From the NCBI GenBank assembly GCA_021159005.1, contig JAGGSN010000076.1, positions 1 to 35,695 of the forward strand: a stretch of 35,695 nt of DNA. The letters run 5' to 3'. Origin of the DNA: Candidatus Zixiibacteriota bacterium (GTDB lineage: Bacteria; Zixibacteria; MSB-5A5; UBA10806; 4484-95). The notes under the pieces were generated by a model. The model did no database searches. It saw nothing but the letters and a program-made list of their open reading frames with translations, and had not been told where the DNA came from. This document shows positions 16,945 to 22,131 of this stretch, piece by piece (positions within the stretch are counted from its first letter, which is position 1; every line of letters begins with the position of its first letter). A program made the position numbers and the translations under genes.

Positions 16945-18117
16945 ATGTGGCTCGTTTTTTTGTTAGTATTGGTTCTTTCAGCTTACGGCTTCTATGAATA
17001 TAGTCGTCATAGCAATAATATAAATCAAATATCAAATCGCATTCACATTAATGGTACGCGCGGTAAATCATCGGTAACCCGATTAGTTGGCGGCGGTTTA
17101 AAGGGCGGCGGCAAGCAGGTTTTCATAAAAACTACCGGCACCAGCCCCCGTATTATTGATGTTGACGGCAAAGAGTACCCAATTAGACGTGTTGGCTCCG
17201 CCAATATTATAGAACAGCTTAAAATTGCTCGACAGGCAGTTGCCGATAAGGCAGAGTATTTTGTTGTCGAGTGCATGGCGCTATTTCCCGGTCTTCAGTA
17301 TATAACCGAACACCAGATGATTCGATCTCAGGTTGGAGCTATTACCAATATCAGGGAAGACCATCTCGATGTTATGGGACCTCGGATTGAGGATGTCGCT
17401 CAGGCGATTTGCAATACTATCCCCCGAAATGGAATGCTGTTTACAACGGAAAACAGATTTATTGAAACCATAAATAAACGCGCCTCGGTTCTTAATACGG
17501 AAGTTATTTCGGTAGATCCGGAAACAGTAACGGTGGACGATTTAGCAGGTTTCTCTTATCTTGAACATAAAGACAATGTAGCCTTAGCGCTGGCGATTTG
17601 CGAACATTATAATATCGACAGACAATCCGCTCTCAAGGGGATGCATCAAATCAAACCAGACTCCGGAGCTATGCACAAATACTCTATAAATATTCACGGC
17701 AAGACAATTGAATTTGTCAACGCTTTTGCCGCCAACGATCCCGATAGCTATCGCGCTATCTGGAAGATGTTTGAATTCCACAAAGGCAATAAGAATCAAT
17801 TTATAGTTCTTGTAAATTCACGTCAGGATAGAATTCAGCGAGCCGAACAGCTTGGCGAGTTCATAGCCCGAGAGGTGGAAGCGGATTACTTTGTAGTATC
17901 CGGAGAATATACATACCCATTGGTGCAAAAAGCCATAAAGAGCGGTTTGTCTCCTGAGATTATTAAAGATATGGGAGGACAATCGGCTGATAAGGTATTT
18001 AATTATATATGCGATTTTACTGATAAATCATCACTGGTTGTTGGAATTGGAAATATTGTGGGGCTGGGTGATGAGATAGTGAAGTATTTTATTAATAAAG
18101 GGAGGATAGTTGCCTGA
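16945..18117 (+). CDS. pgsB: Poly-gamma-glutamate synthase PgsB/CapB
   Basis: 390 residues from this ATG, matching the Bacillus PgsB start (MWLL...) and length (~393). An in-frame TTG at 16912 would add 11 residues and is less likely; GGAAAGAGA lies ~7 bases before the ATG. An N-terminal membrane helix (2-17) precedes a Mur-ligase-like ATP-dependent amide ligase domain with P-loop NGTRGKSS (36-43). Other family landmarks are the ECMAL segment, ITNIREDHLDVMGP, AFAANDPDS, LVNSRQDRIQRAEQ and the C-terminal GIGNIVGLGDEIV. PgsB, with PgsC, polymerises glutamate through its gamma-carboxyl group at the membrane. It is the first gene of a five-gene operon and its end overlaps pgsC by 8 bases. Confidence 0.93.
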   Translation: MWLVFLLVLVLSAYGFYEYSRHSNNINQISNRIHINGTRGKSSVTRLVGGGLKGGGKQVFIKTTGTSPRIIDVDGKEYPIRRVGSANIIEQLKIARQAVADKAEYFVVECMALFPGLQYITEHQMIRSQVGAITNIREDHLDVMGPRIEDVAQAICNTIPRNGMLFTTENRFIETINKRASVLNTEVISVDPETVTVDDLAGFSYLEHKDNVALALAICEHYNIDRQSALKGMHQIKPDSGAMHKYSINIHGKTIEFVNAFAANDPDSYRAIWKMFEFHKGNKNQFIVLVNSRQDRIQRAEQLGEFIAREVEADYFVVSGEYTYPLVQKAIKSGLSPEIIKDMGGQSADKVFNYICDFTDKSSLVVGIGNIVGLGDEIVKYFINKGRIVA

Positions 18118-18574
18118 ATCGACATTAATTATGCAGGCTATCGGCCTGGGACTTGTTCTGAGTTTGATTTTTTCTGAAACTTTGGGGCTGGCTGCCGGCG
18201 GTATGGTTGTCCCCGGATATATTGCCTTGATGATTCATCAGCCGCTTCGTATTCTCGGCACTATTGTTGTCTCGCTAATAACATTTTTAACCGTCAGGCT
18301 GATGTCTCATCACATGTTTATATATGGGCGCCGCCGCACAGTTATGATAATACTTATTGGCTTCTGTTTCGGCTGGGCATCCAGGGAACTTTTTGTGATG
18401 ACACCATCAGGCTTGAGTGTCGAGTTTCAAACTATCGGTTACATCATTCCCGGTCTTATTGCCAACTGGATGGAACGTCAGGGGGTTGTCCAAACAATAT
18501 CCATGATGATTGTTGCCGGCGTGTTAGTGAGGATGCTCTTAATGATATTCACAGGCGGGGAGGTGATATTGTGA
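18110..18574 (+). CDS. pgsC: Poly-gamma-glutamate synthase membrane subunit PgsC/CapC
   Basis: 154 residues and almost entirely membrane-embedded (four to five helices), close to the ~149 of Bacillus PgsC. Family landmarks are GLVLSLIFSETLGLAAGGMVVPGYIAL near the N-terminus (PgsC: LLSLIFAE..GLVVPGYLGL), the FIYGRRR motif and IGYIIPGLIANWMERQGV. It forms the synthase with PgsB and probably helps move the chain across the inner membrane. The start is TTG at 18110, inside pgsB (GGGAGGATAG just upstream acts as ribosome binding site). The end overlaps the next GTG start by four bases, indicating tight translational coupling. Confidence 0.93.
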   Translation: MPESTLIMQAIGLGLVLSLIFSETLGLAAGGMVVPGYIALMIHQPLRILGTIVVSLITFLTVRLMSHHMFIYGRRRTVMIILIGFCFGWASRELFVMTPSGLSVEFQTIGYIIPGLIANWMERQGVVQTISMMIVAGVLVRMLLMIFTGGEVIL

Positions 18575-19716
18575 GGCAAAAAGTAGGCAAACCTTCGTAT
18601 GCATTATTAGTATTTCTGACCATATTTTCCCTTTTTCTTTTCTATTTAGCTGAAAAATCTCAAACGCCTCGCAAGGCGGCTTATTACGACCAGAAAATAG
18701 CGGCGGCAGAATTAACTAAGCAGGCTCAGGGCGTGATTAAAGATGAGCTGGTTCGGCTTGGCTATGTTATCGATATCCAAAATGACCCGAATATGACTGG
18801 TTTGATTGGCCCGCTGTCATCGCTTATCACCACCGACCGCGGTTATATCCGGGATAAGCTGATTTCTACTAATCCCAATAACAGCGCTGTCTTAATTGAT
18901 TTGTTTCATAGAGCAAAGTTGCAGCCCGGAGACCATATTGCTGTAATGTTTACCGGCTCTTTGCCGGGAATGAACATAGCGGTACTTGCAGCCTGTAAGA
19001 TAATGGAATTGACGCCGGTGATTATAACCTCTGTCGGTCCCTCATCATGGGGAGCAAACCGGGAGAAGCTTACCTGGCTGGATATGGAAAGCCTGTTTGT
19101 GAAAAGCGGGCTATGGCCTTACAAGTCGGTTGCCGCATCATTAGGCGGCGGCAATGACCATGGCCGCGGTATTTCGCCGGAGGGCAGAAACTTGCTTAAA
19201 GAGGCGATTAATAGAAATGGCGCAGGACTAATATCATCAATATCAGAAGAACTGCCGTTAGGTTCGCTTGAGGATAACATAGAAGCAAGAATCGAGATTT
19301 TCGATATGGAAAAAGGCGATGAGGAATTTAAAGCTGTTGTTAATGTTGGCGGCGGTTTGGCAGCGGTAGGCTCATCACAAAACGGACGTTTAATCCCCCC
19401 GGGATACAATGCCAGGCTATATGAAAGGCAATTACCGGCAGTGGGCGCAATAAATATTCTGGCAGACCGCTTGATACCGGTTATCCACCTGCTTCAGATT
19501 ACTCGTTTTGCCGAGAAATACAAACTGCCGGTCGATATTACAGCCGAGCCAAAAATCGGCGAGGGTCCTGTTTTTGTCCAGGAAAAATATTCTATTATGA
19601 CAACAATAATCTATACGCTCATACTAATCGTCGTTCTGTGGGCGGCTATTAGAGTTGATTTTAGATATTATATTTATAGAAATAAGCATCTTTTCGTTCG
19701 GAAAAACATTGGATGA
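18571..19716 (+). CDS. pgsW: Poly-gamma-glutamate system protein PgsW
   Basis: 381 residues with a GTG start overlapping the pgsC stop (GTGA). It matches the family called 'poly-gamma-glutamate system protein', which accompanies pgsBC in some lineages lacking the Bacillus pgsA arrangement. One N-terminal helix (about 9-26, SYALLVFLTIFSLFLFYLAE) and one C-terminal helix (about 346-365, SIMTTIIYTLILIVVLWAAI) bracket a large, probably extracytoplasmic domain. That domain has VMFTGSLPGMNIAVLAAC, TSVGPSSWGANREKLTWLDME and SLGGGNDHGRG. Its biochemical role is not established. Here it takes the third operon position; no capA/pgsA-like gene is present in the window. Confidence 0.85.
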   Translation: MRQKVGKPSYALLVFLTIFSLFLFYLAEKSQTPRKAAYYDQKIAAAELTKQAQGVIKDELVRLGYVIDIQNDPNMTGLIGPLSSLITTDRGYIRDKLISTNPNNSAVLIDLFHRAKLQPGDHIAVMFTGSLPGMNIAVLAACKIMELTPVIITSVGPSSWGANREKLTWLDMESLFVKSGLWPYKSVAASLGGGNDHGRGISPEGRNLLKEAINRNGAGLISSISEELPLGSLEDNIEARIEIFDMEKGDEEFKAVVNVGGGLAAVGSSQNGRLIPPGYNARLYERQLPAVGAINILADRLIPVIHLLQITRFAEKYKLPVDITAEPKIGEGPVFVQEKYSIMTTIIYTLILIVVLWAAIRVDFRYYIYRNKHLFVRKNIG

Positions 19717-19723
19717 GGATAAC

Positions 19724-20611
19724 ATGAGATTTAAATATTTATACATTGTATTATTTCTTGCACTTTTTATAATTGCTTCGGATATTTCGGCTAAAAATAC
19801 AATTATGCCGTTTGGACGACCCAAATCCGTTGCCTTTGATAACCATAAAGGTAGAACATACACCTATTACTGCTTGGTAGATGGTCAATCGATGGGGTTT
19901 GCGGTCGAGGGACCGGCGAAGATTGATATTAGAAACAGAGCCGGTTTGTCGAACGAGGATATGCGGGCTGAATATCAGGTGCAGGTTTGGGAGGATGAAT
20001 ATTTAGTCGCTGCCGAGAAATTCAGGAGCAAAGCCGTTGATGCTGATATGAAAAATTCAGACCTTTTACCGGCGGCTTATCGCAATATCAGTTTCGATAT
20101 TCCAGCCGGCGTCCATAACTACCGTCTCTGGCTGGTTTCGGAAAATATTGATACTGTTTTTATCCGGCTGTATAAATCAGAACTATCCGATGACAAGCTT
20201 GTCGAGAGCAATATGCACCTGCTTGATTTTAAACGTCGGGTGCATCTGTATTCAAAAAAGAATCAGACACCATATTATCTGTTGGATAAAGAAGAGGGCG
20301 CGAAACTGAGAGTTGCCGGTCCCACAGATATAATTATCCGGTGTCGGGCTAATTTTAGCAATTCTATGGATGGCAGAATTGGCTACACTATTTCAATTAT
20401 GGAAAATGACAAGGTAATCGAAACTCTATCGGCAACGACCTCCAAGTCGCTGATTATGGCTTATCAGGATTATACCGGTGTGGTGCCCTCCAAGCCGACC
20501 GAATTTATTTTCAAGGTGCCGACAGGAAATCATGTTTATACGTTCATATTAAAAGAATCAGCGGCGGAGACAATCAGTGTTCGTTTTTCTCTGCCGAGAC
20601 AGAATAAGTAG
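19724..20611 (+). CDS. Periplasmic protein of two duplicated domains, in the pgs operon
   Basis: 295 residues; the family is not recognised. The ATG has GAGGAT upstream and starts a signal peptide (MRFKYLYIVLFLALFIIASD, cleavage probably after ISA). An in-frame upstream start at 19655 would overlap pgsW and spoil the signal peptide. The mature part consists of two copies of one ~105-residue domain, about 46-150 and 182-289. Shared features in order are Y-Y-x-L-x-D near the start, V-x-GP-x-x-I-x-IR-x-RA, S-N, Y-x-(I/V)-x-(V/M)-x-E, SK, F-x-x-P-x-G-x-H-x-Y, and a final T-(I/V)-x-x-R-(F/L). The alternating pattern suggests a beta-sandwich fold. It starts 7 bases after pgsW and ends 2 bases before the outer-membrane barrel gene, so it probably acts in the same process, perhaps as a periplasmic adaptor (inference). 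Confidence 0.75.
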   Translation: MRFKYLYIVLFLALFIIASDISAKNTIMPFGRPKSVAFDNHKGRTYTYYCLVDGQSMGFAVEGPAKIDIRNRAGLSNEDMRAEYQVQVWEDEYLVAAEKFRSKAVDADMKNSDLLPAAYRNISFDIPAGVHNYRLWLVSENIDTVFIRLYKSELSDDKLVESNMHLLDFKRRVHLYSKKNQTPYYLLDKEEGAKLRVAGPTDIIIRCRANFSNSMDGRIGYTISIMENDKVIETLSATTSKSLIMAYQDYTGVVPSKPTEFIFKVPTGNHVYTFILKESAAETISVRFSLPRQNK

Positions 20612-20613
20612 TT

Positions 20614-21666
20614 ATGTTAATAAGCAGTAAATATCTCAATCGATGCCGCCTCTCGACCTTAATTGTGATAATTGTTCTGTGTGTCGGTATCGCGCCTTCC
20701 GTTTGGGCTGATAGTTTCAACTATAATGTGAGTTTGCGCGCCGGATATGATGATAATATCATCAACTATTCCGATGCCGACCTCGACCAGATGGATGATA
20801 CCAGCGCTTCAGAAAATAAGTTCGCAATAGAATCGAAAGATGATTTCATTATCATATCTAAACTTGAAGCGGTCTTAAAAACTAATATTGCCGGACACAG
20901 CACGCATTTCGGCATAAGAGGGGCTTACTATTACTATCAGGATAACGATATTAAAAGATATTATAAAGCCGGGGGATTTATCAAACGATACCTGAAAAAG
21001 GGAGTCTATCTGCAAACATCGTTCGGCTATATTCCGGATTATTACTATCGCAACAGCTACAGCTCGACAGCGGGGTATCAGGAAGCCAAGTTCGATAAAA
21101 TCACCGCGGAGGTTAAGTTTTCAGCGGTTTTGTTTAATAGCCTTAGAGGCAATCTTTACTATTATTACTCCAGCAAGGATTTTATTCCGTTGTTTGATGA
21201 ACGAGATATTACCTCCCATAGCGGCGAAATTCAATTGATTTACCGTCCGGCTAAGCTGTGTAAAGTCTGGGGTTCCTATAACTACATTACAGCCAAAGGA
21301 GCCGGCGCGGATAATGTCGATTTTCGGCGCGATACGTCATACGATTCAAATTTACTATCTTTAGGTTTGAGGTTCTATTTGCAGGGCATTGCCAGTCAGA
21401 AATTTGAACTTGCCGGTAATGGCTCATATAAAATCATCTATTTTAGAACTATTAAGATTACAAACGAAGACCGCTACCGCATTGGCCGAACTGATTATAG
21501 ATCATCTTTTAGTTTCTCTGTAAAGCATTATATGTCATCGAAATTTAGTATTGGCATAACATTCAACAGGATTATCAAAACAACAAATTTGCCGGCGGAA
21601 GATTTAAAGGCGTTTTTAGAGTACTCATCTAATTCATACTATTCTATTTTGAGTTTTGCATTTTAA
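20614..21666 (+). CDS. Outer-membrane beta-barrel protein, last gene of the pgs operon
   Basis: 350 residues. A signal peptide (MLISSKYLNRCRLSTLIVII..., cleavage probably after SVWA) is followed by many alternating amphipathic strands rich in Tyr and other aromatics (GIRGAYYYYQDND, GNLYYYYSSKDF, SSFSFSVKHYMSS, SIGITFNRIIK). The protein ends in ...YSILSFAF; a C-terminal Phe with alternating hydrophobics is the classic BAM recognition signal. An early acidic segment (ADLDQMDDTSASENK, about 50-65) could be a loop or plug. It starts 2 bases after the previous stop, so it belongs to the pgs operon. I infer an outer-membrane channel or anchor for the polymer; it is not a recognised family such as Wza or a TonB receptor. 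Confidence 0.78.
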   Translation: MLISSKYLNRCRLSTLIVIIVLCVGIAPSVWADSFNYNVSLRAGYDDNIINYSDADLDQMDDTSASENKFAIESKDDFIIISKLEAVLKTNIAGHSTHFGIRGAYYYYQDNDIKRYYKAGGFIKRYLKKGVYLQTSFGYIPDYYYRNSYSSTAGYQEAKFDKITAEVKFSAVLFNSLRGNLYYYYSSKDFIPLFDERDITSHSGEIQLIYRPAKLCKVWGSYNYITAKGAGADNVDFRRDTSYDSNLLSLGLRFYLQGIASQKFELAGNGSYKIIYFRTIKITNEDRYRIGRTDYRSSFSFSVKHYMSSKFSIGITFNRIIKTTNLPAEDLKAFLEYSSNSYYSILSFAF

Positions 21667-21833: not shown

Positions 21834-22131
21834 TTGGTTATGCGTCAGGATGGAGGGAACGACATCCTGACGCCCGGGAACTTATGCGGCGCTTCATTAA
21901 AAAACAGATTGAATTGCAGCCGGATATATATTTGGTTATGCGTCAGGATGGAGGGAACGACATCCTGATGCCCGGGAACTTATGCGTCGCTTCATTAAAA
22001 AACAGATTAAATTGCAGCCGGATATATATATTTGGTTATGCGTCAGGATGGAGGGAACGACATCCTGACGCCCGGGAACTTATGCGGCGCTTCATTAAAA
22101 AACAGATTGAATTGCAACCGGATATATATAT
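21834..22131 (+). repeat. Three tandem ~100-bp units, each with a perfect or near-perfect stem-loop
   Basis: Units are 21834-21931 (98 bases), 21932-22031 (100) and 22032-22131 (100). Units 1 and 3 differ by one substitution plus a two-base AT extension; unit 2 has three further substitutions. Each unit starts TTGGTTAT and then has GCGTCAGGATG, a 10-base loop GAGGGAACGA, and CATCCTGACGC, an 11-bp stem. In unit 2 one pair becomes G-T. Each ends with an AT dinucleotide run. A fourth, shortened copy lies at 25235-25277. There are no variable spacers, so it is not a CRISPR array. Confidence 0.92.

What the first reader, a model, noticed from the sequence alone, without database searches (positions are those of the whole stretch)
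16945..21666. Five-gene poly-gamma-glutamate operon extended to the outer membrane
pgsB, pgsC and pgsW are followed without real gaps (overlaps of 8 and 4 bases, gaps of 7 and 2 bases) by a signal-peptide protein of unknown family and an outer-membrane beta-barrel. Poly-gamma-glutamate synthesis is best known in Gram-positive Bacillus, where no outer membrane must be crossed. The layout suggests a Gram-negative export or anchoring system for an amide-linked polymer, with inner-membrane ligase, periplasmic piece and barrel in one transcript. The sequence shows gene order and families; the polymer and the export role are inference.
Basis: partly seen in the sequence, partly recalled or inferred. 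Interest (0 to 1): 0.78.

Follow-up and report, generated by a model that had tools for sequence, protein, structure and literature searches.

The report
Polyglutamate operon with outer-membrane barrel
In many uncultured two-membrane bacteria, the genes that make the polymer poly-gamma-glutamate are followed by two unnamed genes, for a periplasmic protein and an outer-membrane pore, which look like the missing exit route for this polymer.

Summary
Window 16945-21666 carries five same-strand genes: pgsB, pgsC and pgsW (curated families TIGR04012, TIGR04011, TIGR04332), then two genes that match no named family. In 132 genomes of the window's phylum (Zixibacteria), the fourth protein (D4) and the barrel (OMB) occur in the same 16 genomes; all 16 carry pgsBCW, and none of the 113 genomes without it has D4. 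Among 73 long-enough loci from about a dozen phylum labels, 61 have D4 directly after pgsW. Exceptions are mainly Myxococcota and a divergent type with gamma-glutamyltransferase. D4 is a tandem duplication. OMB is confidently predicted as a 14-stranded barrel. D4 is fused to the barrel in three Cloacimonadota genomes, and one D4 repeat in two further loci, so D4 is probably a periplasmic partner of the barrel. Most likely D4-OMB carries, or holds, poly-gamma-glutamate across the outer membrane. Gene order, families, co-occurrence and fusions are shown; polymer identity and export are inferred. Poly-gamma-glutamate in Gram-negatives is not new (Fusobacterium, 2009; Cloacimonadota genomes). No paper found here describes the D4-OMB module.

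The parts
16945..18117 (+). pgsB: N-terminally membrane-anchored Mur-ligase-type poly-gamma-glutamate synthase
   Evidence: TIGR04012 427.7 bits, cut-off 222.7; Mur_ligase_M PF08245
18110..18574 (+). pgsC: integral membrane partner
   Evidence: TIGR04011 132.5 bits; PF14102 CapC 125 bits
18571..19716 (+). pgsW: two-TM inner-membrane protein with a periplasmic alpha/beta domain; takes the CapA/PgsA position in the operon
   Evidence: TIGR04332 279.8 bits; AF2 pLDDT 94, helices 10-29 and 342-380 flank the domain; no PDB match with E<=0.001; positively charged tails on both sides, N-tail 3 K/R and 0 D/E, C-tail 5 and 0
19724..20611 (+). D4: exported periplasmic protein, tandem duplication of a ~130-residue module with an invariant Arg in equivalent positions of each repeat (R72, R208)
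   Evidence: duplication: hhalign prob 99.8, E 1.2e-27; invariant columns; N-terminal hydrophobic stretch in 60 of 61 family members; no family match
20614..21666 (+). OMB: 14-stranded monomeric-type outer-membrane beta-barrel
   Evidence: AF2 on 47 homologues pLDDT 92.1, pTM 0.84, 14 TM strands; Foldseek matches OmpG (TMt 0.64), CymA, VhChiP, PgaA, all about 8-12% identity; ends in Phe

Best explanation
The five genes form one envelope-spanning system of two-membrane bacteria. PgsB with PgsC polymerises glutamate into poly-gamma-glutamate (or a close gamma-linked polyamide) at the inner membrane. PgsW presents a periplasmic alpha/beta domain that receives the nascent chain. D4, a double module in the periplasm docked on the barrel, binds the chain and hands it to OMB, a 14-stranded pore through which it leaves, or in whose mouth it is held as a surface layer. 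Shown: gene order, families, near-obligate co-occurrence of D4 and OMB with pgsBCW, duplication, predicted barrel fold, D4-barrel fusions. Inferred: polymer identity, binding by D4, direction and fact of export, order of hand-over.
For: PgsB, PgsC and PgsW are above curated cut-offs. Reverse test in 132 Zixibacteria: D4 in 16 genomes, OMB in the same 16, all carrying pgsBCW, none of the 113 without it having D4; Fisher p 6e-18, not corrected for relatedness. Forward test: 61 of 73 loci with room have D4 within 1.5 kb after pgsW, 49 of 61 have OMB; the 12 exceptions are the same loci for both. Cloacimonadota: pgsW in 105 of 125, D4 in 87; by inspection 83 of the 87 are adjacent to pgsW on one contig and the other 4 have D4 at a contig edge. 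Fusions: D4+OMB in one ORF of 639-642 aa in L118-L120; one D4 repeat + OMB in L086 and L053. Since a barrel's N-terminus is periplasmic (general knowledge), the fusions put D4 in the periplasm. Distances of D4 and OMB follow those of PgsB (r 0.85 and 0.91, permutation maximum 0.26). 14-strand pore with inward-facing K/R 14 vs D/E 5; over the family six inward positions are mostly K/R and none mostly D/E. A sister type of pgsBCW has gamma-glutamyltransferase (TIGR00066, 456 bits) just before pgsB, supporting gamma-glutamyl chemistry.
Against: No polymer, localisation or transport data. Lumen charge is only mildly positive over the family (15.8 K/R vs 11.2 D/E inward; strand phase was guessed from hydrophobicity). 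capABC alone in E. coli gives PGA (quoted in PMC5542703), so a dedicated outer-membrane protein is not always required for production. Myxococcota and the GGT type, presumed two-membrane, carry pgsBCW without D4/OMB. A few solitary D4 copies exist (L116, L117, L127). The D4 structure was not predicted.
Confidence: 0.68

Rival explanations
1. Anchoring rather than export: OMB-D4 is an outer-membrane receptor that tethers poly-gamma-glutamate as a capsule, while the chain crosses by another route.
For: No CapD-type anchoring gene in the block; most barrel residues conserved above 90% lie on or next to the loops that should be extracellular (e.g. D76, D77, D198, D240, D286, R292), fitting a conserved surface site.
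Against: A 14-strand pore and an N-terminal periplasmic module are more than a tether needs; no other route is seen in the neighbourhood.
Confidence: 0.17
2. The polymer is not poly-gamma-glutamate but another amide-linked chain made by a PgsB relative with changed specificity; the envelope layout is the same.
For: PgsB specificity cannot be read from sequence; these lineages are distant from characterised producers.
Against: PgsB is far above the equivalog cut-off; GGT next to sister loci and an Asp/Glu racemase near L113 fit glutamate.
Confidence: 0.1
3. D4 and OMB serve uptake (a porin for degradation products or peptides) and are linked to pgsBCW by shared regulation only.
For: Closest fold matches are diffusion porins (OmpG, CymA, chitoporin).
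Against: Near-obligate pairing over many phyla, no conserved hydrolase or importer inside the five-gene block, and fusion of D4 to the barrel.
Confidence: 0.05

Closest known systems
CapBCA / PgsBCA poly-gamma-glutamate synthase (Bacillus; also Fusobacterium nucleatum, Francisella capBCA)
   Same: PgsB and PgsC families and their order; membrane-anchored third gene product
   Different: Third gene is TIGR04332 (PgsW) with no PF09587 CapA domain; two extra genes for a periplasmic protein and an outer-membrane barrel
Poly-gamma-glutamate loci reported from Cloacimonadota genomes (PMC13082233, PMC8542988)
   Same: Same phylum, probably the same loci; L069, L078 and L107 are Tenebribacter and Stygibacter genomes of the kind described in PMC8542988
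   Different: PMC13082233 describes three genes (CapB, CapC, CapA) and never mentions the outer membrane; [quoted passage not shown]
Outer-membrane exporters of secreted polysaccharides (AlgE, PgaA, BcsC, PelB)
   Same: Barrel with a periplasmic partner module, encoded with an inner-membrane synthase; PgaA and BcsC are among the Foldseek matches
   Different: 14 strands rather than 16-18 (strand numbers of the known ones from general knowledge), a duplicated module instead of a TPR scaffold, no sequence relation; 1 of 47 members touches PelB_C at E 0.013
OmpG / CymA / FadL 14-stranded barrels
   Same: Strand number and overall fold (OmpG TMt 0.64)
   Different: About 10% identity; different gene context; partner D4

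Membership tests
PgsB/PgsC poly-gamma-glutamate synthase | PgsB and PgsC above curated equivalog cut-offs, adjacent | tested here: met
   427.7 vs 222.7 and 132.5 vs 96.45 bits; 8-base overlap
PgsB/PgsC poly-gamma-glutamate synthase | makes gamma-linked glutamate polymer | not testable with these tools
   needs biochemistry
TIGR04332 poly-gamma-glutamate system protein (PgsW) | score over 100 bits, next to pgsBC | tested here: met
   279.8 bits; next to pgsC in the window and relatives
PF09587 CapA/PgsA (PGA_cap) | PGA_cap domain in the operon | tested here: not met
   no Pfam match in PgsW; the genome's only PF09587 gene lies in a glycosyltransferase-like cluster on another contig (cluster read from sequence, not by HMM)
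Outer-membrane beta-barrel | closed transmembrane barrel with signal peptide and C-terminal aromatic residue | tested here: met
   14 strands, pLDDT 92; window protein ends in Phe; of 49 relatives 21 end in F and 9 in L
Known polysaccharide exporters AlgE/PgaA/BcsC/PelB | family HMM match or homologous TPR scaffold | tested here: not met
   no Pfam or NCBIfam match for the window barrel; only one weak PelB_C hit in 47 members
BBP2_2 (PF10082) putative porin | score over the gathering cut-off | tested here: inconclusive
   6 of 47 members hit at best E 6e-4, the window protein does not
Dedicated exporter of PGA | polymer crosses the outer membrane through the barrel | not testable with these tools
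   needs deletion, localisation and conductance work

The most novel reading that the evidence does not exclude
D4-OMB is a new class of outer-membrane exporter: the first dedicated route for a ribosome-independent polyamide across the outer membrane, with a duplicated module as periplasmic guide and a 14-strand pore, spread over many bacterial phyla together with a periplasm-facing PgsW of unmatched fold.
Probability: 0.5. Interest if true: 0.78.

Novelty: new variant of a known kind. Interest (0 to 1): 0.66.

Why it matters
PGA loci are known in most phyla, including two-membrane ones (PMC5542703). That survey notes that two-membrane bacteria need at least one more protein to cross the outer membrane, yet its PGA model, built on Bacillus anthracis, names none. 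The D4-OMB pair is a concrete, widely conserved candidate for that missing step and makes the question testable with two gene deletions. Export of a charged polyamide through a defined pore would also interest polymer production, and the pair gives a sequence signature for Gram-negative PGA producers in uncultured phyla.

Tried and rejected
Pfam scans of every D4, OMB and PgsW member for a shared weak family: none consistent. Sequence searches of the PDB with PgsW, D4, OMB, PgsB and PgsC: nothing significant. Fold search of PgsW: no match with E<=0.001, TM low, so the cysteine-synthase-like top hits were rejected. CapA (PF09587) as the missing operon member: the genome's only copy is in another cluster. 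Papers naming PgsW or TIGR04332: none; the phrase 'poly-gamma-glutamate system protein' only as Francisella CapA. Promoter and terminator scan: counts within chance. D4 hits in Cloacimonadota at E 1e-3 to 1e-9 looked like noise but lie directly after pgsW, so they were kept. The marginal OMB hit in G010 (E 3.5e-4, 63-aa frame) was treated as noise.

Full report
WHAT IS THERE. PgsB, PgsC and PgsW are above the curated NCBIfam cut-offs. The two downstream proteins, here called D4 and OMB, match no Pfam or NCBIfam family. The window is contig C76 of a 3.66 Mb genome; its closest named relatives are 'Candidatus Zixiibacteriota' MAGs.

CO-OCCURRENCE, FORWARD. TIGR04332 is in 19 of 132 genomes of the phylum. 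Sixteen have D4 and OMB after pgsBCW. The L021 contig ends at pgsW; the barrel of G002 is on a second contig because the operon contig ends; D4 of L027 was recovered by tblastn. Three (L032-L034) are a divergent type with gamma-glutamyltransferase before pgsB and no D4 or OMB. A scan of the GTDB genome set with a PgsW profile gave 108 relatives, of which 80 were kept. Their labels include Zixibacteria, Cloacimonadota, Fermentibacteria, WOR-3/Stahlbacteria, TA06, Eisenbacteria, Electryonea, Calditrichaeota, Ignavibacteriaceae, Bacteroidales and Myxococcales/Polyangia; some MAG labels may be wrong. D4 lies within 1.5 kb after pgsW in 61 of 73 loci with room, and OMB in 49 of 61. The 12 exceptions are the same loci for both: seven Myxococcota or Deltaproteobacteria, three Bacteroidetes-type, one UBP14, one WOR-3 with a truncated pgsW.

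CO-OCCURRENCE, REVERSE. D4 and OMB profiles were searched in all 132 Zixibacteria genomes. D4 is in 16, OMB in the same 16 plus one noise hit, and no genome without pgsBCW has D4. In 125 Cloacimonadota genomes pgsW is in 105 and D4 in 87. By inspection of the listed coordinates, 83 of the 87 have D4 directly after pgsW on the same contig, and the other four have D4 at a contig edge. Solitary D4 copies are rare: L116, L117, L127. Fisher p values are 6e-18 and 2e-9; they ignore relatedness.

FUSIONS. In L118-L120 a single ORF of 639-642 residues holds D4 followed by OMB, directly after pgsW. In L086 and L053 the barrel ORF begins with one D4 repeat, while a full D4 gene precedes it. The two fusion types differ in architecture, so they are probably separate events. 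Because the N-terminus of an outer-membrane barrel is periplasmic (general knowledge), D4 should be periplasmic and next to the barrel.

STRUCTURE. D4: its halves align with hhalign probability 99.8, E 1.2e-27; a Tyr (48 invariant, 184 near-invariant) and an invariant Arg (72, 208) fall in equivalent places. A paired invariant Arg suits binding a polyanion (inference). OMB: AlphaFold2 pLDDT 92.1, 14 strands; among Foldseek matches OmpG has the best TM-score (TMt 0.64), with CymA, chitoporin, FadL, PgaA and BcsC, all near 10% identity. Most residues conserved above 90% lie on or next to the long loops, which should be extracellular. Inward-facing positions, assigned from hydrophobic alternation, carry 14 K/R and 5 D/E in the window protein, and 15.8 vs 11.2 on average in the family: weak support for an anionic substrate. 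PgsW: pLDDT 94.0, an alpha/beta domain between two hydrophobic helices, basic tails at both ends, hence a periplasmic domain by the positive-inside rule. No PDB structure matches with E<=0.001.

CO-EVOLUTION. Over 46 complete loci, pairwise distances of D4 and OMB follow those of PgsB (r 0.85, 0.91) and each other (0.89), above all 500 permutations. D4 and OMB are only 23% identical on average against 44-51% for the core genes, which would explain why no family has been defined.

CHEMISTRY. The link to glutamate rests on PgsB and PgsC equivalog scores and on gamma-glutamyltransferase (TIGR00066, 456 bits) and an Asp/Glu racemase in sister loci. The window genome's only PF09587 (CapA) gene is in another cluster.

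LITERATURE. Fusobacterium nucleatum was the first Gram-negative shown to make polyglutamate (Candela 2009, cited in PMC3815933). PGA loci were reported from Cloacimonadota genomes (PMC8542988; PMC13082233), the latter as three genes with no mention of the outer membrane. PMC5542703 finds PGA loci in most phyla, says two-membrane bacteria need an extra protein for translocation, and models PGA on B. anthracis without one. No paper found uses PgsW or TIGR04332. Only open-licence PMC papers were searchable, so a description in a subscription journal or preprint cannot be excluded.

VERDICT. The core is a known synthase; the new part is a conserved outer-membrane module, best read as export or surface retention of poly-gamma-glutamate.

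Noticed in passing
window 21834-22129: Three tandem copies of a 98-base repeat (97-99% identical), each containing an inverted-repeat-like stretch (GCGTCAGGATG...CATCCTGACGC), directly after the barrel gene; function unknown.
   Followed up: partly
L032:4671-11025, L033, L034, L112-L115: A second pgsBCW type without D4/OMB. L032-L034 have secreted gamma-glutamyltransferase before pgsB; L032-L034 and L112 have, after pgsW, a secreted protein with a similar N-terminal domain of about 350-400 residues; in L112 only a sorting tail matches Pfam. L113 also has an Asp/Glu racemase nearby.
   Followed up: partly
L101, L103-L106, L108, L109: Myxococcota/Polyangia (and one Deltaproteobacteria) pgsBCW loci without D4 or OMB; no conserved replacement was seen downstream.
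   Followed up: partly
L121:8813-9145 and following gene; similar in L122, L124, L126, L129, L130: In Cloacimonadota a conserved 91-112 aa gene without Pfam match follows the barrel, often followed by a glycerol-3-phosphate-dehydrogenase-like gene.
   Followed up: no
L020:7391-8918; similar in L019, L023, L026, L030: In several Zixibacteria an ECF sigma factor (Pfam-confirmed in L020) and a second gene (possible anti-sigma) lie just upstream of pgsB, suggesting envelope-stress control; absent upstream in the window itself.
   Followed up: partly
L116:6698-7714, L117:6823-7659, L127:4421-5302: Solitary D4 homologues without barrel or pgs genes nearby.
   Followed up: partly
window 18571-19716: PgsW has a high-confidence predicted fold (pLDDT 94) with no significant match among solved structures; its many invariant Gly/Asp/Ser residues suggest a catalytic or ligand site.
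   Followed up: partly
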